Shown here: piece after piece, positions 1 through 29,318 of the stretch
How the letters are laid out: the number at the start of each line of letters is the position of its first letter
How positions within the stretch are numbered: the stretch's first letter is position 1
The notes under the pieces: model-generated
Databases searched by the model: none
The model's input: only the letters and a program-made list of their open reading frames with translations
What the model was told of the DNA's origin: nothing
Made by a program: the position numbers and the translations under genes
Origin: Planctomycetaceae bacterium
GTDB taxonomy: Bacteria > Planctomycetota > Planctomycetia > Planctomycetales > Planctomycetaceae
Length of the DNA stretch: 35,650 nt
NCBI GenBank assembly: GCA_015485495.1
Contig: WFTL01000162.1
Span: 1 to 35,650 of the forward strand
Direction of reading: 5' to 3'

Positions 1-521
1 ACGGAGCGGGGCCCTCCACTGTCCGATGAAGGGACGGGCTCTGTCCCGTCCGATGTAACCCACCGAGCCACACAACCGGCCCTGTCCGTTATGTCGGAAC
101 ACTGACGGCGGGACGTCATCGAGCCGTACACATCATGCGCCAGGATCGTCGAGGGCTCAACGCCCGTGCGCGCGTTCACGCCGCTCGAAGACGCTGCTGC
201 TGCCGGAACGGCGTCGCTCCGTTCCTGGATCCGGCCTGCTGGCCTGCTGGCCTGCTGGCCTGCGGTCTGGAGCGATCCTGAGATGTCGGCGGAAAAGAAC
301 GGGGATTCCGCGATGTCCTGGCGGATTCCGCGTGTTTCCCTTGCCAAAGACGCCCGGAACTCGTCAGATTACCTGTTGGGGAAGTTTCGAAAAATACCGG
401 GAAGCAATGAATCTGGGTGAGTGGTGCAGGATGCGCCACGGAATGTCACTCGTCCATCGGCGGACCAGGCGGCAGGGAGTGCGGCGGGAACAGAAGGGCC
501 GATGTGACAGAGTTTCGGGTC
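1..521. other. Gene-free left edge of the window
   Basis: No open frame here has a convincing start, composition or recognisable domain. The stretch holds a GC-rich hairpin at 32-51 (7-bp stem, 6-nt loop, no T tract) and an 8-bp tandem repeat at 233-263. It probably contains the 3' flank of a gene left of the window and the leader of the membrane-protein gene starting near 522. Confidence 0.5.
233..263. repeat. Short tandem repeat, 8-bp unit GGCCTGCT, about 3.9 copies
   Basis: Three exact GGCCTGCT units are followed by a seven-base partial unit. The repeat lies in non-coding sequence about 260 bp upstream of the first gene. Perfect units of this kind can change copy number by slippage. No coding frame needs it, and no function can be read from it. 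Confidence 0.85.
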
Positions 522-2888: not shown

Positions 2889-3017
2889 ACTCAATGAACG
2901 CAAGCGGTTTTCCCGGGGAAACCGATACGGGGAAGGACGGGCTCGCACCGTACCGGCGCGCTCCAGGTACGACATGGGCCGATTTCCCAACTCTCAACCG
3001 GCTAACAGGGTGGCAGC

Positions 3018-3260
3018 ATGTCAGAAGAGATTTCAAGCCAGACGGATGATCAGGACTTCGAAGAAATCAGCAGCGACGAAGTGGATCGCGTCGTGGAGAT
3101 TCTGGATGGCCTGATCGAAAGCGTCGACAGCGACAACATCCGACATTACCTCGAAGAGGCTTCCAGCAACATCTACTATCTCGTTTACGAAGATTCCGAT
3201 CTCGAAGAAGACGCCGAGCCGGCTGCTGAGATCGATGATGCCATGCAGGATGCCGCCTGA
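3018..3260 (+). CDS. Very acidic 80-residue protein, unknown function
   Basis: Of 80 residues, 28 are Asp or Glu and only two are Arg, with no Lys. It has no signal peptide and no membrane segment. The middle (about residues 20-60, VDRVVEILDGLIESV through NIRHYLEEASSNIYYLVYED) is predicted helical. The N-terminal and C-terminal ends look disordered. The ATG at 3018 has a weak AGGG-type site 9 nt upstream, and a strong terminator closes the unit at 3298-3337, which supports a real transcript. The family is not recognised. Small acidic proteins next to nuclease-like genes are often immunity proteins, but this is inference from charge and position only. A general planctomycete housekeeping protein is equally possible. 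Confidence 0.75.
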   Translation: MSEEISSQTDDQDFEEISSDEVDRVVEILDGLIESVDSDNIRHYLEEASSNIYYLVYEDSDLEEDAEPAAEIDDAMQDAA

Positions 3261-3385: not shown

Positions 3386-3952
3386 TCAGTCGGGCCGTTC
3401 GGTTTCCTGTTCCGCATTGCCTCCGAAGGAGGCACGCAGTGCATCGGCCTGAGCGGACACCGTGGCAGCCGGTCCGGTCAGTTTGAGATAAAAGACGCCC
3501 GTGTTGTGCATGAGGATCACTGCCAGCATGCGGGAGTTCGGGACGGGGCGCGTCTGTCGGCGAATGGGAGGGCCGATCGGCTGCTGCCAGGTTCCGCTGA
3601 CATCGACGACCACATATTCGTGATCGCCTGCGCGTCCCTGAGTGACCTTCGAGGTGCGTCCCCGGGCATCGAACTGACCGATCCAGCGCCGGATGTTCGC
3701 GTCCACGGATCCTCCACCACCCGGAAAACTGTAGACGGCCAGTTCCGCAGGCTGCTCATCCCCCTCGACCGGCGGGATCTGAAACGTCCCCAGCCGCATC
3801 CGGCTGGGATGATCCACCTTTTGCCATGCTGCGGGAATGTTCAGTTCCAGTCCCTGGAGTGTCACCGTGGTGGTGTCAGCCGTTTCATCGGCCGAAACCG
3901 ACTGGACCATCAGCGGCAGCACAGACAGAAAAACAAACGCGGAACACTTCAT
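3386..3952 (-). CDS. Secreted protein of unknown function
   Basis: A 188-residue protein with a clear signal peptide (MKCSAFVFLSVLPLMVQSVSA, cleavage near residue 22). The mature part is about 165 residues, likely alpha/beta. It opens with a VTLQGLELNIPAAWQKV strand-turn and contains a GGGGSVDANIRRWIGQF helix, a DHEYVVVDVSGTW strand and a TGVFYLKLTGP strand near the end. This is the pattern of small secreted PsbP/Mog1-like domains in planctomycetes, but no named family is assigned. It may be co-transcribed with the short frame just upstream, whose stop overlaps this ATG by 4 nt. It converges on the terminator at 3298-3337. Confidence 0.8.
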   Translation of the reverse strand: MKCSAFVFLSVLPLMVQSVSADETADTTTVTLQGLELNIPAAWQKVDHPSRMRLGTFQIPPVEGDEQPAELAVYSFPGGGGSVDANIRRWIGQFDARGRTSKVTQGRAGDHEYVVVDVSGTWQQPIGPPIRRQTRPVPNSRMLAVILMHNTGVFYLKLTGPAATVSAQADALRASFGGNAEQETERPD

Positions 3953-4332
3953 CGGATTCTCCCGAAGTTCAGAATCATAAGAGCAGATGTTGCTGCTGCC
4001 ATGATACCGCTTCGGCGTTGCTGCCGCGATGGATCGATTCGGGATACCGAACCGGAGGGTTGTCCGTCGGCCGGGGGGCCGTTCAGTGCCGGGGGAATGA
4101 CTGTCCCGATCCGGCGGGCAGGCAGAAACGAGGCCGCATCCGATCCTGGCCGGCTGGTGTGCAGCCGGCCGCCGGATTCTATTGTCATCAGACCAGAGGG
4201 GCTCCTCACGGTCGGAAGTCGCAGTCGTGCGCGTGGCGATCCCGGTCGAGACGTTTCCTCAGCCGACATGCAGCGACCAGGAGCCGGGCCGGGCAGGCAA
4301 AGCAGCGCCCCGGAGATCAGCACAGAACGCAT
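3949..4332 (-). CDS. Doubtful 127-residue secreted-type protein
   Basis: The frame starts with MRSVLISGALLCLPGPAPG, which could be a short signal peptide, and its TGA overlaps the ATG of the next gene as ATGA, the usual geometry of coupled genes. Against it: the rest is low-complexity Arg/Ser/Pro/Gly sequence with no recognisable fold, there is no ribosome site, and the codon choice is less biased than in neighbouring genes. It may be non-coding. It is listed because the overlap is suggestive and the interval otherwise holds no gene. Confidence 0.25.
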   Translation of the reverse strand: MRSVLISGALLCLPGPAPGRCMSAEETSRPGSPRARLRLPTVRSPSGLMTIESGGRLHTSRPGSDAASFLPARRIGTVIPPALNGPPADGQPSGSVSRIDPSRQQRRSGIMAAATSALMILNFGRIR

Positions 4333-4356: not shown

Positions 4357-4400
4357 GGCAGCGGAAGCGGGCAGGCCGGATCCAGGAGCGGAGCCACGCC
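4357..4400. repeat. Dispersed intergenic repeat R2, copy 1
   Basis: Positions 4357-4394 match 5119-5156 with one difference in 38, and weaker similarity extends to about 4334-4400 versus 5096-5162. Both copies lie in the same orientation and outside confident genes. The two copies flank the 97-residue unknown gene at 4645-4938. No terminal inverted repeats or target duplications were seen. Confidence 0.8.
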
Positions 4401-5118: not shown

Positions 5119-5162
5119 GGCAGCGGAAGCGGGCAGGCTGGATCCAGGAGCGGAGCGATGCC
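5119..5162. repeat. Dispersed intergenic repeat R2, copy 2
   Basis: Same orientation as copy 1 at 4357-4400. The core (ggcagcggaagcgggcagg, then ggatccaggagcggagc) differs at one position in 38. It lies in the long non-coding stretch right of the 97-residue unknown gene. Confidence 0.8.
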
Positions 5163-5389
5163 GATCCGGCAGTTCGGGCGCTGGCAGGTGATCACACGTG
5201 CAGTCGCCCCAAAACACGCTGCGAATTCCCGGCCCCAGGGGCTTTGTGTCAGTGCCGGCTTCGCCGAGCACAGAGAATGATTCGATGTGATGAAAAGATC
5301 TCTCAGGGAGCCGCGGCGCCACAGAGTTCCGCCGTCCGACGGGCCGGGCCTCTGTGGCCAGGACAGCGCATGGAAGCGGAACGGCGCGA

Positions 5390-5552
5390 GCCGGAGAAAC
5401 GCGACGGCAGAGCAGTCCGGGGGGCCGGACCGAGTCTCGGGCAGGCCATCGGTTTCGTGATTTCCCATGCGGACACGAATCGGTATCGCCGCGCGAGGAT
5501 TGGATCAGTCGAAGCAGGTAACTGACTGATTCATTCCGATGAACGCGGCGGA
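5390..5552 (-). pseudogene. Displaced copy of the prs 3' end and its downstream flank (repeat R1, copy A)
   Basis: These 163 bp match 7288-7450 with two substitutions and two single-base indels (about 97.5 % identity). On the minus strand the first about 45 bases encode the end of PRPP synthase (RRVHRNESVSYL). A one-base insertion destroys the natural stop. The remaining roughly 116 bases match the sequence just downstream of the intact prs. The rest of prs is absent here, so this is a gene-end fragment. Together with copy B it forms a direct repeat around the choloylglycine-hydrolase gene. Confidence 0.9.
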
Positions 5553-5693
5553 AAGGGTGGCCGCTGGTCGCGGTGAGAATGGCGTGACGGTGCCCCGGAG
5601 AACTCGTCTGAGCTGTCCGGACGATCGGCGGCAGGCTGTTTCCGCATCCCGCCGGCACCGGGTAAACCGGTTCATCAGTTGCTGCGTCGAAAG

Positions 5694-6812
5694 CTATCTG
5701 GGAGTGACGTCTTCGATATCCTGAACCTTCTTTTTGTCGAGCGGGCTGATCCGGACCCCGTCTTTCAGGGAGCGGAAATCGATCGCAGCCACATCGACCT
5801 TTCGCACCCGCCGATTGTGCTGCGTGTGGTAGTAGATGACTTTGTTCGAGATGTCGGTTGCAACGGTCCAGATGGTGGAGCTTCGCATTCCCTTTGTGTC
5901 GTGTGCTCCCGATCCTTCCGATGCGCCCAGGGGCACGTTGAAATTGTCCAGAATGCGAAACACTTCACACATCGCGTCCGGCCCATCTTCCACGGCACGG
6001 GCTGTCTGAGTAAACGCAACGGCCCGGATGAATCGAGACGGCGGAGTAAAGTCTCCTGGCAGCCCAATGAGCCCGCTGCCTCCGCCAAGCGGTCTGAAAT
6101 CCAGGTCTTCGATTCGCTTCGCCGGGAGGGCAACCGGAGAGAGGTTGATGTAATTCCGGAGATTCGTCGTATGCCAGTCGTAGTTCGGGGAATTGGTGAT
6201 CACGCCAAGCGGTGCATCGAAGATCCGGATCTTTCCCTGAGTGAACTCCACAACGATCTGGCATCCGGACGAATCTGTGATCATGAGATGGACCGGCGGG
6301 GCGAGTCCGATTGCAGGTTCAGGGACAGGAACAACCTGAATGTCACGCAGAGCGGCGCGTACGTCGGCGACGGAAACGCAGGTTGTCAGCAGGTACTGTG
6401 CAACGTCCAGCGGTCCCAGAGCGCGGTGCGCGCTGGCGGGATCGTACTTTTGGTACTCCGCAAAACCAGGATGGTAGAACACCCCCAGAGTGAGTCCTTT
6501 TTCGTTCAGACCGTCCGTGAGCAGCTCTTTTCGAAGAACATCGATGCCCACGACTCCATACTTCGAGCGCCACGTCATCCCTGGTTTCCCATCCGGCGTA
6601 TGTCCGGTGAAGGCGTGATTGCGGGGGATGATGATCAGCCGACCGTTGAGATCGAACGTCCCCCATTCCAGCGTTCGACCGAACACGATGCTGCCGTCGC
6701 GCGCCGTCAGGGTGATTCCGGTACAGGCGAACAGCAGATTCGGCCCGCCTGCTGATACCAGGAGGCTGACGGCGAGCCATGCCACGATGACACGCCCGGA
6801 TGGTTTGTTCAT
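5694..6812 (-). CDS. Choloylglycine hydrolase / penicillin V acylase family Ntn-hydrolase
   Basis: A 372-residue secreted amidase of the linear-amide C-N hydrolase family (bile-salt hydrolase, penicillin V acylase, acid-ceramidase-like). A signal peptide covers residues 1-29 and ends in LLFA. Cleavage there exposes Cys30, in the expected CTGITL context, as the N-terminal nucleophile. Other family signatures follow: FGRTLEWG (Arg near the active site), MITDSSG, the ITNSPNYDWH motif carrying the conserved Asn, and SRFIRA with the conserved Arg. Length is at the upper end for the family. The true substrate cannot be told; in environmental bacteria it is often an N-acyl amide such as an acyl-homoserine lactone. 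The start at 6812 is set by the signal peptide. The gene lies alone between the two 163-bp R1 repeats. Confidence 0.92.
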   Translation of the reverse strand: MNKPSGRVIVAWLAVSLLVSAGGPNLLFACTGITLTARDGSIVFGRTLEWGTFDLNGRLIIIPRNHAFTGHTPDGKPGMTWRSKYGVVGIDVLRKELLTDGLNEKGLTLGVFYHPGFAEYQKYDPASAHRALGPLDVAQYLLTTCVSVADVRAALRDIQVVPVPEPAIGLAPPVHLMITDSSGCQIVVEFTQGKIRIFDAPLGVITNSPNYDWHTTNLRNYINLSPVALPAKRIEDLDFRPLGGGSGLIGLPGDFTPPSRFIRAVAFTQTARAVEDGPDAMCEVFRILDNFNVPLGASEGSGAHDTKGMRSSTIWTVATDISNKVIYYHTQHNRRVRKVDVAAIDFRSLKDGVRISPLDKKKVQDIEDVTPR

Positions 6813-7403
6813 GACATGGGTTCCTGTGACGGCCAATGGGTGGCCCGGTCGGATGATCAACGACGGTTCCGATTCCGGATGCCGGAGCCTGCCGTTGCTC
6901 CGGCTGTAACGAACTGTTGCGCGGCGCCCCATGCACTGCCTGTCAGGATGTTTCCTGCCAGCGTTTTCCGGCCGGTCCGCCGCCAGGGGAGGTCCTCCGG
7001 GAAACGGAAAACCAATCCTGTCTCGGAACGCACATTGTTGGCTCTCATTTGTGAGATACAAGCGTTCCCTGTTTCAGAATCGCTCAGGCGGGCAGGTGAG
7101 GGCGCAGTGTGCAAAGACTGCGGCCGGCAGGCCGGGTTGAGATGAGCACGTGGCCATCGGCCTGGATACAGCGAGGGACACTGACAAAAGCGAGACTGTC
7201 CGGTTCAGAGGGCGGGAGGAATTCCCGGCATACCGGACATTCCCAGACAGGGCCCCGATGCGACATCTGACGCGTCCAGGGAGGCGCGCCGGAGAAACGC
7301 GACGGCAGAGCAGTCCGGGGGGGCCGGACCGAGTCTCGGGCAGGCCATCGGTTTCGTGATTTCCCATGCGGACACGAATCGGAATCGCCGCGCGAGGATT
7401 GGA
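6813..7403. other. 590-bp non-coding stretch between the hydrolase gene and prs
   Basis: No supported gene. It should carry the promoter of the hydrolase gene (right-to-left reading) and the 3' flank of prs. The part from 7288 onward belongs to repeat R1 copy B. A run of seven G lies near 7317-7323. No T-tract hairpin was found for prs. Confidence 0.6.
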
Positions 7404-7450
7404 TCAGTCGAACAGGTAACTGACCGATTCATTCCGATGAACGCGGCGGA
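7288..7450 (-). repeat. Repeat R1, copy B: native prs 3' end plus flank
   Basis: This is the partner of the copy at 5390-5552. It covers the last about 47 bases of the intact prs, including the stop, and 116 bases downstream of it. Same orientation as copy A. Start-to-start distance is 1,898 bp, so recombination between the copies would remove the hydrolase gene as a 1.9-kb segment and leave prs intact. Confidence 0.9.
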
Positions 7451-8360
7451 TGGCTTCACCCAGAAGTTCAGCGACGCTGACGACCGTCAGATTGTTCAGC
7501 CGTGAGTCGGACGCCTGAAGACAACTGTTGGTCACCACGACTCCATCGACCTGAGCTTCATTGATCCGGCGGATGGCCGGTCCGCAGAAGACTCCGTGCG
7601 AAGCACTGATGAAGACTCGCCGGGCTCCGTGTTCCCGGGCCACGCGAACCGCTCCACAGATCGACCCGGCCGTCGTGATCATGTCGTCGAAGATCAGTGC
7701 GGTTTTGCCGTCGATCGGACCGCCGATGAGATTCGCCTGCTGAGTTTCCAGGGCGTTGGAACGCCGTTTGTCGACGATCGCCAGGGTGCCTCCCAGATGT
7801 TCCTGATGATGCAGACTTCTTTTGATGCTCCCTTCGTCCGGACTGACGATGACCAGTTCGTCAGGAGGAATGTCGAGTGTCTGGAAGTGGCGATCCAGAA
7901 TGGGAGCCGCGTACAGATGATCCACCGGGACATCGAAGAATCCCTGAATCTGAGCCGCATGCAGATCCATCGTCAGCACCCGATGGGCTCCGGCATTCAC
8001 AATGAGGTTCGCCACCAGTTTGGACGTGATGGGAACCCGGCCGGAATCCTTGCGGTCCTGGCGGGCATAGCCGAAGTAGGGAATCACTGCCGTGATCCGT
8101 GCAGCACTGGCCCGCCGACAGGCATCGATCAGAATCAGCAGTTCCATGAGCGATTCATTGACCGGAGGCGACGTCGGCTGCACCAGATACACATCACAGC
8201 CACGAATGTTCTGGTTCAGTTTGACGCTGATTTCCCCGTCCGGAAAATTGCCGGTGTCGACATGTCCCAGCGTGATGCCCAGATAGTCGGCGATCTCCGT
8301 GGCCAGTTGAGGATTGGCGCGGCCGCTGAGAATGGTCAGGCGCTCATACATCTCCGACAT
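7404..8360 (-). CDS. prs: Ribose-phosphate pyrophosphokinase (PRPP synthase)
   Basis: A cytoplasmic 318-residue enzyme that makes PRPP from ribose 5-phosphate and ATP for purine, pyrimidine, His, Trp and NAD synthesis. The family signatures are in place: the FPDGE loop at residues 39-43, the catalytic PYFGYARQDRK segment at about 94-104, MDLHAAQIQGFF at about 131-142, DKRR at about 197-200, and the PRPP-binding loop ALIFDDMITTAGS at 221-233. The regulatory-flap region reads SPDEGSIKRS rather than the common DxGGxxRAR form, so the subtype differs from the E. coli enzyme. Start at 8360 gives the standard length. surE lies 161 bp upstream on the same strand. Its last codons are duplicated at 5390-5552. 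Confidence 0.97.
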   Translation of the reverse strand: MSEMYERLTILSGRANPQLATEIADYLGITLGHVDTGNFPDGEISVKLNQNIRGCDVYLVQPTSPPVNESLMELLILIDACRRASAARITAVIPYFGYARQDRKDSGRVPITSKLVANLIVNAGAHRVLTMDLHAAQIQGFFDVPVDHLYAAPILDRHFQTLDIPPDELVIVSPDEGSIKRSLHHQEHLGGTLAIVDKRRSNALETQQANLIGGPIDGKTALIFDDMITTAGSICGAVRVAREHGARRVFISASHGVFCGPAIRRINEAQVDGVVVTNSCLQASDSRLNNLTVVSVAELLGEAIRRVHRNESVSYLFD

Positions 8361-8521: not shown

Positions 8522-9337
8522 TCACCGGTTTTCGGAAGACGACGCCACCGGCTTCGAGGAATCTTCATGGTTCGCTTCGTCCACGCACCCGTTGCGGCCA
8601 TGCCGGGCCGCTCCGGTGCAAAGACAGATGGGAGTCGCCGTGATGTGGCCGTCGAGAACCCGGCTGACGTCGCATTCCCCCGTCGTTTTGCGATCTCGAA
8701 AATCAGCACAGTATTTCAGTCTCAGAGTGCCGTCTTCGGATTCGATCGTTTCATAATCCACGGCGTGCGGGGCCAGCCCCATGGGAGCGATTGTGAAGTC
8801 TTCCGGGTGTCGGTCGCCGTCGACGGCCGGGAAATTCACGTTCCAGAACTGGCCGGGTGGCAGTCGGTATTCGTCGGAAAGGAGCGTCCGGATGATGCGC
8901 CGGGCGTGATGGGCCAGTTGATCCCAGTGAACCTGGTGTCCTGGCCGGACATAGCGCGACAGCGCGAGGGCCGGGACTCCCAGAATGGCGGCTTCCCGGG
9001 CCGCGGCCGCCGTGCCGGAATAGTACAGATCGATGCCCAGATTGGCTCCCGGATTGATTCCGGCGACGACGAAATCCGGAGACGGCAGATTCAGGCCCCG
9101 CAGTCCGATGCGAACGCAGTCCGCCGGAGACGCATCCGCCACGAAGATTGTTCCGAACGGTGTGTGGCTTCGTCGTTCCACCCGGATCTCATCCCGGGTG
9201 TTGACCGCGTGTCCCCGGGCGCTGTGGCATTCGCGCGGTGCCACCGTATGGACGTCTCCCAGATCCGACAGAGCCGTGTACAGGGCGGCCAGTCCCGGAG
9301 CATCGAACCCGTCATCGTTGGTGATCAGAAATCGCAT
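8522..9337 (-). CDS. surE: 5'/3'-nucleotidase SurE (survival protein E)
   Basis: A metal-dependent phosphatase removing phosphate from nucleoside 5'- and 3'-monophosphates, cytoplasmic, of 271 residues. The N terminus MRFLITNDDGFDAPG carries the NDDG metal-binding signature at residues 7-10. A Ser/Asn loop follows at about 39-48 (PRECHSARGHAVN). VAGINPGANLGID and YYSGTAAAAREA at about 92-118 are the active-site segments. Residues beyond about 245 form a polar tail not needed for the fold. The chosen ATG at 9337 begins exactly at the first strand. Upstream in-frame codons exist but add only a basic extension. It reads toward prs, a plausible nucleotide-metabolism pairing. Confidence 0.96.
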   Translation of the reverse strand: MRFLITNDDGFDAPGLAALYTALSDLGDVHTVAPRECHSARGHAVNTRDEIRVERRSHTPFGTIFVADASPADCVRIGLRGLNLPSPDFVVAGINPGANLGIDLYYSGTAAAAREAAILGVPALALSRYVRPGHQVHWDQLAHHARRIIRTLLSDEYRLPPGQFWNVNFPAVDGDRHPEDFTIAPMGLAPHAVDYETIESEDGTLRLKYCADFRDRKTTGECDVSRVLDGHITATPICLCTGAARHGRNGCVDEANHEDSSKPVASSSENR

Positions 9338-9507
9338 CGGCTGTGTTCGTTCTTTCCGCGGTCCGGCACGAAAGCGTCTCATATGCGAAGTCGTTCACCG
9401 GCATCACGCGTTCGTATGACAGCACGTTCGGAAAACGAAGTCAAAATGGTTCCTGACGCCTTCTTTGTTTCGAAAAAACTGCAATCGGCACCTGGTCGGC
9501 CGGCCGG

Positions 9508-28204: not shown

Positions 28205-29318
28205 ATGGATTCAGAACTTCGATCCCGCTGCAACGAAATTCAGGAACGCATCGTGTATCTGCGAGACTGTCTTTGACCTGGCGACCAAAGAAGCCCGTCT
28301 CCAGGAACTCAGCGGCATCATGTCCGCTCCGGATTTCTGGGACGATCAGGAAAAGGCTCAGACGATCGTCAGTGAACTGCAGCGTCTGAAAGCCTCGGTC
28401 GAGCCGGTTCGCCGTATGCTGGCGGCCGGGGAGGATCTTCAGGTGCTGATGGAGTTCGCCGAAGAGGATTCCGACAGTGAAGCGGAACTGCAGGCAGCGG
28501 TCGCCGATCTGCAGAAGCAGGTGGACGCCGTCGAACTTCAGGCGCTCCTGTCGTCTCCGGAAGACGCGTGTTCCGCGTACGTTCAGATTCAGGCCGGGGA
28601 GGGAGGAACCGACTCGGCCGACTGGGCCCTGATGCTCATGCGCATGTACGTGCGCTGGGCCGAACGCCACGGGTTTTCCGTAGAAGAAATCGACCTGTCT
28701 GAAGGGGAAGAAGCGGGGATCCGCAATGCCACGCTGCTGATCAAAGGCGACTACGTCTACGGGTATCTCAGGGGAGAAACCGGAAACCATCGTCTGATTC
28801 GGATCAGTCCGTTCGATTCGGCCGGCCGCCGTCACACGGCCTTTGCGGCAGTGGATGTCACTCCGGAACTGGATGACCGCTTCGAAGTGGAAATCAACTG
28901 GGACCGGGATGTTCGGGAAGACACGTATCGAGCGGGCGGAGCAGGGGGACAGCACGTCAACAAGACGGATTCGGCTGTCCGCCTGACGCACGTGTCCGGA
29001 GTCGTCGTGCAGTGTCAGAACGAACGCAGTCAGCACAAGAACCGGGCCACCGCTCGCAAAATGCTGCAGGCGCGTCTGTATCAGATCGAACTGGAAAAAC
29101 GCGATGCGGAACTGGCCGCCCGGCGCGGCGACAAATCGCGTATCGGATTCGGAGGTTCGACCATCCGCAACTACGTGCTGCATCCGGATCAGTACGTGAA
29201 GGATTCCCGCACGGGAACGAAAGTGGGCAATCCTCAGACGGTGCTCGACGGCGACATCGATATTTTTCTGGAATCGTGGCTGCGCTGGCAGCTTGCGGAA
29301 TCGACGAGGGAATCCTGA
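28205..29318 (+). CDS. prfB: Peptide chain release factor 2, with programmed +1 frameshift
   Basis: Class-I release factor for UGA and UAA. It is encoded in two frames: 28205-28273 (23 codons, ending RDCL) and 28275-29318, joined by a +1 shift at CTT-TGA-C. The joined product is about 370 residues, normal for RF2. After the shift it reads [20 protein letters not shown]. Key motifs are the SPF codon-recognition tripeptide in [12 protein letters not shown] and [15 protein letters not shown] with the catalytic GGQ. The in-frame TGA at 28274-28276 is decoded by RF2 itself, so low RF2 favours the shift. A gene calling only the second frame would start falsely at 28320. The next gene begins 5 nt after the stop. 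Confidence 0.97.
28271..28277 (+). other. RF2 programmed frameshift site
   Basis: CTTTGAC: the ribosome pauses at the in-frame TGA and slips +1 on CTT. This is the universal prfB signal. The upstream stimulatory Shine-Dalgarno (AGGGGG in E. coli, three bases before CTT) is degenerate here, with only GCGAGAC before TGT-CTT. Confidence 0.95.

What the first reader, a model, noticed from the sequence alone, without database searches (positions are those of the whole stretch)
5390..7450. Choloylglycine-hydrolase gene flanked by 163-bp direct repeats derived from the 3' end of prs
Seen directly: 5390-5552 and 7288-7450 are about 97.5 % identical and in the same orientation. Copy B is the genuine end of prs plus its flank; copy A is a stranded fragment. 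Only the secreted Ntn-hydrolase gene lies between. This is the layout left by integration at the 3' end of a gene (the target end restored by the incoming copy), or by a segmental duplication. No integrase is present, so it could be a stripped-down cassette or one moved in trans. Recombination between the repeats would excise a circle of about 1.9 kb and keep prs intact.
Basis: partly seen in the sequence, partly recalled or inferred. Interest (0 to 1): 0.6.

Follow-up and report, generated by a model that had tools for sequence, protein, structure and literature searches.

The report
Acquired hydrolase gene between duplicated sequence
A secreted amide-hydrolase gene that this bacterium probably acquired from elsewhere sits between two near-identical copies of the tail end of a neighbouring housekeeping gene, a scar of a recent DNA insertion or duplication of an already described kind rather than a new mobile element.

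Summary
The repeat is real: 5386-5552 and 7284-7450 are direct repeats, 97% identical over 168 columns, 1898 bp apart, E about 1e-76, the only two copies found in the genome. Copy B is the last 47 nt of prs plus 120 nt downstream. Copy A is a frameshifted stray copy 141 nt past the stop of the one supported gene between them, a secreted choloylglycine-hydrolase-family (PF02275) gene. No homologue was found in the two other genomes of the genus, and in the tree it sits with another planctomycete family and a cyanobacterium, apart from the family's own homologues: probably acquired. The 3' end of prs is not a recurrent attachment site: no second copy of it in 52 relatives' loci (two had almost no downstream sequence). 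No integrase was found. In both sister species prs faces fusA instead, so this junction was rebuilt in this lineage. Best reading: a recent illegitimate event, most simply "insertion with long target duplication" as described for Helicobacter pylori; a later local copying of the prs end is nearly as likely. Known kind, low interest. By-catch: a lineage-specific REP-like repeat family with a transposase gene.

The parts
5386..5552 (-). Repeat copy A: stray copy of the prs 3' end and its downstream flank; prs frame broken by a one-base insertion
   Evidence: blastn 97.0% to 7284-7450; frame translation
7284..7450 (-). Repeat copy B: last 47 nt of prs (7404-7450) plus 120 nt downstream
5694..6812 (-). 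Secreted choloylglycine hydrolase / penicillin V acylase family gene (372 aa, signal peptide judged by eye, likely mature N-terminal Cys30)
   Evidence: PF02275 E 1.3e-67; Cys30 in 41 of 41 and Arg46 in 41 of 41 aligned rows; PDB relatives penicillin V acylase and bile salt hydrolase
5553..7283 (.). 1731-bp segment between the repeat copies; no other ORF with a Pfam match, no inverted repeat joining its two ends seen
7404..8360 (-). prs, ribose-phosphate diphosphokinase (318 aa), intact
   Evidence: TIGR01251 E 1.9e-110; Pfam
8522..9382 (-). surE, upstream neighbour of prs also in both sister species
   Evidence: PF01975; tblastx matches beside prs in L071 and L072
522..3260 (+). Left block (membrane protein 522-1934 and small ORF around 2979-3188), found on a different contig from prs in both sister species

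Best explanation
A laterally acquired CBAH-family gene was joined to the downstream side of prs by illegitimate (not site-specific) recombination, and in that event about 165 bp of the recipient's own DNA, the prs 3' end with its flank, was duplicated so that it now brackets the gene. This is the footprint called insertion with long target duplication. Shown here: the repeat, its host origin, its youth relative to the 22% nucleotide divergence of prs from the sister species, the gene's absence from the sister assemblies, its tree position outside the family's own homologues, and the rebuilt neighbourhood. Inferred: that the duplication happened in the same event that brought the gene, and that the break was repaired by copying or by a staggered break with fill-in. 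The repeats have no demonstrated function. RecA-type recombination between them (65-nt exact run) could delete 1898 bp and would in most crossovers leave prs intact (inference from where the differences lie).
For: Repeat and origin. No match to the gene at E 0.001 in the two other genomes of the genus (97% and 92% complete); at E 1e-40 or better it is found in 17 of 170 genomes of the family, its own included. Tree of 41 rows: window gene with G048 (another family) and Okeania, support 99/95, apart from the 16-row group (88/93) that holds 15 of the 17 other same-family rows; the remaining two, L010 and L013, lie in a deep separate group. Sister G001 prs is convergent with fusA 16 bp away (G002 alike), while here fusA lies on other contigs and the left block lies on other contigs than prs in the sisters. 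Repeat young: 97% while prs shares 78% nt with the sisters. No similar non-tandem repeat in 818 kb of this genome.
Against: Codon usage of the gene is ordinary for this genome (28th percentile of 342 mechanically called ORFs of at least 300 aa; GC3 30th percentile), so it does not look like a fresh arrival from a distant donor even though the repeat is fresh. No genome with a single repeat copy and no gene beside the same flank was available (the genus holds 3 genomes). A six-base match GGCGCG with a 2-bp gap at the left edge of both copies could equally mark a template switch that copied the repeat alone. Local direct repeats of similar size exist in relatives without bracketing a copied gene end (L174, L182).
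Confidence: 0.45

Rival explanations
1. Local duplication after the gene was already beside prs: about 165 bp of the prs end was copied 1.9 kb downstream by template switching or break repair, or a tandem duplication was followed by deletion of one gene copy.
For: Host-like codon usage of the gene with a young repeat. Two other local direct repeats of 113-114 bp at 93% and 96% in 433 kb downstream of prs in 52 relatives' loci (L174, L182) show that such copies arise. Six-base match at the left edge.
Against: No remnant of a second hydrolase or prs copy beside copy A (five local comparisons, none outside the shuffles). Such repeats were not seen elsewhere in 818 kb of this genome. That the stray copy brackets exactly the one accessory gene would be a coincidence.
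Confidence: 0.38
2. Site-specific integration of a small mobile element at the 3' end of prs (an att site), stripped of its integrase or moved in trans.
For: The layout with the host gene end intact and a stray fragment at the far side.
Against: None of the 8 ORFs between the copies matches an integrase family; no second copy of the prs end in 52 relatives' loci; identity extends 120 nt beyond the gene; no inverted repeat joining the two ends of the insert seen.
Confidence: 0.05
3. Homologous (Campbell-type) integration of a circle that already carried the prs end plus the hydrolase gene, from a close relative.
For: Gives exactly this layout (inference).
Against: Needs a circle from a strain that already had the gene beside prs; none of the 52 relatives' loci has the hydrolase gene within the fetched stretch downstream of prs.
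Confidence: 0.06
4. Assembly artefact of a fragmented assembly (180 contigs).
For: Fragmented assembly; one contig end elsewhere shows a 130-bp perfect inverted fold-back (L205).
Against: Copies differ at five columns, one of them a frameshift in a gene end; longest exact run 65 nt; both copies lie more than 5 kb inside the contig.
Confidence: 0.05

Closest known systems
Insertion with long target duplication (Nobusato et al. 2000, Helicobacter pylori; the paper itself not seen, only described in passages of PMC1643837, PMC3031569 and PMC3154945)
   Same: An accessory gene bracketed by long direct repeats of host sequence; no integrase or transposase found beside it
   Different: There it was found by comparing two strains and is frequently associated with restriction-modification genes (PMC1643837); here no empty site is available and the gene is a hydrolase
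Genomic islands integrated at the 3' end of genes by tyrosine integrases (recalled)
   Same: Gene end intact on one side, stray fragment on the other
   Different: No integrase found, no recurrent use of the prs end in 52 relatives' loci, repeat reaches 120 nt beyond the gene
Choloylglycine hydrolase / penicillin V acylase family (PF02275)
   Same: Domain, Cys at the expected mature N-terminus, conserved Arg
   Different: Scores 210.6 and 198.8 against cut-offs of 600 and 350 of the two NCBIfam equivalogs, so substrate unknown

Membership tests
Insertion with long target duplication | Gene(s) bracketed by long direct repeats of host target sequence | tested here: met
   copy B is part of prs and its flank
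Insertion with long target duplication | Close relative with an empty site holding one copy | tested here: inconclusive
   Gene and repeat not found in the sisters, but prs there faces fusA; genus has 3 genomes
Insertion with long target duplication | No transposase/integrase in the segment | tested here: met
   8 of 8 ORFs of at least 80 aa wholly between the copies scanned against Pfam; only PF02275
Integrase-type island at a gene 3' end | Integrase gene in the element | tested here: not met
   As above; a mobilisation in trans is not excluded by this
Integrase-type island at a gene 3' end | Same gene end used in other genomes | tested here: not met
   0 of 52 relatives' loci have a second same-strand copy of the prs coding end at E 1e-4; 2 of the 52 had under 200 bp downstream, most about 10 kb; 52 of the 137 relatives with a hit were examined
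Choloylglycine hydrolase family PF02275 | Profile match above the curated cut-off | tested here: met
   229.1 bits vs 20.4
Choloylglycine hydrolase family PF02275 | N-terminal nucleophile Cys after processing | tested here: inconclusive
   Cys30 invariant in 41 of 41 rows, after an Ala and a hydrophobic leader; cleavage itself not tested
Bile salt hydrolase or penicillin V acylase proper | NCBIfam equivalog cut-off | tested here: not met

The most novel reading that the evidence does not exclude
Single accessory genes in planctomycetes are taken up by an integrase-free route that duplicates 100-200 bp of the recipient's gene end, leaving a self-excisable cassette; this locus would be a fresh example with the host gene kept whole.
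Probability: 0.15. Interest if true: 0.45.

Novelty: new member of a known kind. Interest (0 to 1): 0.2.

Why it matters
Long host-derived direct repeats around an acquired gene record how the gene got in without mobile-element machinery, and predict that it can be lost again by simple recombination. One case at this level is a footnote; a survey for accessory genes bracketed by copies of a neighbour's gene end would be needed to make it matter.

Tried and rejected
Attachment-site idea: 52 relatives' loci (of 137 relatives with a prs hit) were tested for a second same-strand copy of the prs end within the fetched downstream stretch; none found. Three non-coding local repeats (L167, L174, L178) start beyond the prs stop and were not counted as copies of the prs end. 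The repeat's DNA in 59 genomes: 5 matched, own included; three of the other four match at their own prs end, the fourth is a 22-nt match (G021), so the non-coding part was not recovered elsewhere. Known RNA families or tRNAs in the window: none at gathering score. Terminator function of the repeat: no terminator-like site (0 found, 1.8 expected by shuffling), RNA folding not clearly better than shuffles (z -0.77 and -1.30). Remnants of a tandem duplication beside copy A: five local alignments, 28 to 149 of 300 shuffles as good (bases shuffled within 50-base blocks, not dinucleotide-preserving). Inverted ends of the insert: no pair joining the two ends among the 25 of 30 inverted pairs shown; one score of 15 without a control. 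Foreign composition of the hydrolase gene: not seen. Rows left out of the tree: L011, L014-L018, L069, L070 and L134 (weak, partial or fragment hits; L015 and L018, from G006, and L134, from G126, are same-family). Papers: Nobusato 2000 was not seen; two further papers asked for by id were not held; PMC3874152 showed only its reference list; PMC8066178 was seen in passages and PMC2869330 in passages. Listings gave nothing directly on this locus type; two searches gave the long-target-duplication papers.

Full report
Observation. The window (the whole contig C162 of a 4.67-Mb, 180-contig genome) holds a direct repeat at 5386-5552 and 7284-7450, 97.0% identical over 168 columns, E 1.9e-76, spacing 1898 bp. 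A search of the own genome finds these two copies and no other. The longest exact run is 65 nt.

Anatomy. On the minus strand the order is surE, prs (8360-7404, intact), copy B (last 47 nt of prs and 120 nt downstream), 471 nt without a supported gene, the hydrolase gene (6812-5694), 141 nt, and copy A. Copy A carries a one-base insertion inside the former prs reading frame and one substitution there, so it does not look selected as a gene end. Of the 8 ORFs of at least 80 aa wholly between the copies, only the PF02275 gene has a Pfam match. No tRNA and no Rfam match at gathering score is in the window.

The gene. The protein has a hydrophobic leader ending in Ala29-Cys30. Cys30 and Arg46 are invariant in 41 of 41 aligned homologues. 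Its solved relatives are penicillin V acylases and bile salt hydrolases. It lies below both NCBIfam equivalog cut-offs, so its substrate is open. Of 40 genomes searched, 10, own included, matched at E 0.001 or better, with none in the two other genomes of the genus (97% and 92% complete). In the family, 17 of 170 genomes, own included, matched at E 1e-40 or better, the other 16 at 40-47% identity. The nearest homologues are 60-62% identical. The tree of 41 rows puts it with a genome of another family (G048) and Okeania (99/95). Of the 17 other rows from its own family, 15 fall in a 16-row group supported 88/93, and two (L010, L013) in a deep separate group; 12 of 38 inner branches are open, and some loci were left out of the tree (see Tried and rejected). 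It is therefore probably acquired, although its codon usage is ordinary for the genome.

Neighbourhood. In G001, prs and fusA converge with 16 bp between them, and G002 is alike. Here fusA lies split over the ends of contigs C63 and C111, while the genes left of the repeat (522-1934 and about 2979-3188) lie on other contigs than prs in both sisters. Within the 16-17 kb fetched around prs in the sisters, the long tblastx matches to the window are prs and surE only. In 12 relatives' loci looked over by eye (one without downstream sequence), the genes downstream of prs differ between genera. The junction is thus particular to this lineage, but poor gene-order conservation seems the rule here.

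Is the prs end a hot spot? In 52 relatives' loci (433,342 bases downstream in all; L073 and L169 with almost none; 52 of the 137 relatives with a hit) no second same-strand copy of the prs coding end was found. Two of these loci (L174, L182) hold other local direct repeats, 113 bp at 93% and 114 bp at 96%. In 818,002 bases of this genome outside the window no other non-tandem direct repeat of at least 80 bp and 85% turned up. So such a repeat is uncommon here, but similar ones arise in relatives without the prs end.

Mechanism. An integrase-type event is not supported. Two illegitimate routes remain. One is insertion of the acquired segment with duplication of about 165 bp of target, the pattern described for H. 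pylori, which I know only from passages in PMC1643837, PMC3031569 (passages and its introduction) and PMC3154945. The other is a later local copying of the prs end to the far side of the gene. The first explains why the repeats bracket exactly the acquired gene; the second explains why the gene looks compositionally settled while the repeat is young. PMC2869330 (passages) describes host-derived flanking repeats around moved genes in Arabidopsis, and a circle model that would also fit. I put the first slightly ahead. A strain with an empty site would decide.

By-catch. The window holds three copies of a hairpin repeat, all of them left of copy A. A 26-base core of it has 28 hits in this genome and none in 20 relatives, including both sisters (at most 2 mismatches, so diverged copies would be missed). 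The only Y1-type transposase (PF01797) hit among the three genus genomes is in this genome, between two direct copies of the same hairpin. This looks like a REP/RAYT system (name recalled) special to this lineage. Nothing found links it to the 163-bp repeat.

Noticed in passing
window 214-239 (-), 4371-4396 (+), 5133-5158 (+); G000:C72:28281-28314, 28581-28844, 29232-29265: Lineage-specific REP-like hairpin family (28 or 35 hits by the pattern used, none in 20 relatives with the longer one) with a single Y1/RAYT-type transposase gene flanked by two direct copies of the hairpin; a probable REP/RAYT system in a planctomycete.
   Followed up: partly
window 1-50; G000:C72:28982-29207: The contig begins in a second sequence that by eye resembles the 76-bp tandem unit next to the transposase gene; it may explain the contig end.
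   Followed up: no
L068 (Singulisphaera sp. GP187) 3675-4248 and 7421-7784: The hydrolase homologue is split into two pieces about 3 kb apart, as if interrupted by an insertion.
   Followed up: no
L205 1-130 and 447-576: Perfect 130-bp inverted repeat at a contig end of the same genome, possibly an assembly fold-back.
   Followed up: no
L174 and L182 (downstream of prs in two relatives): Local direct repeats of 113 and 114 bp at 93% and 96% identity, similar in size to the one studied but without the prs end.
   Followed up: no
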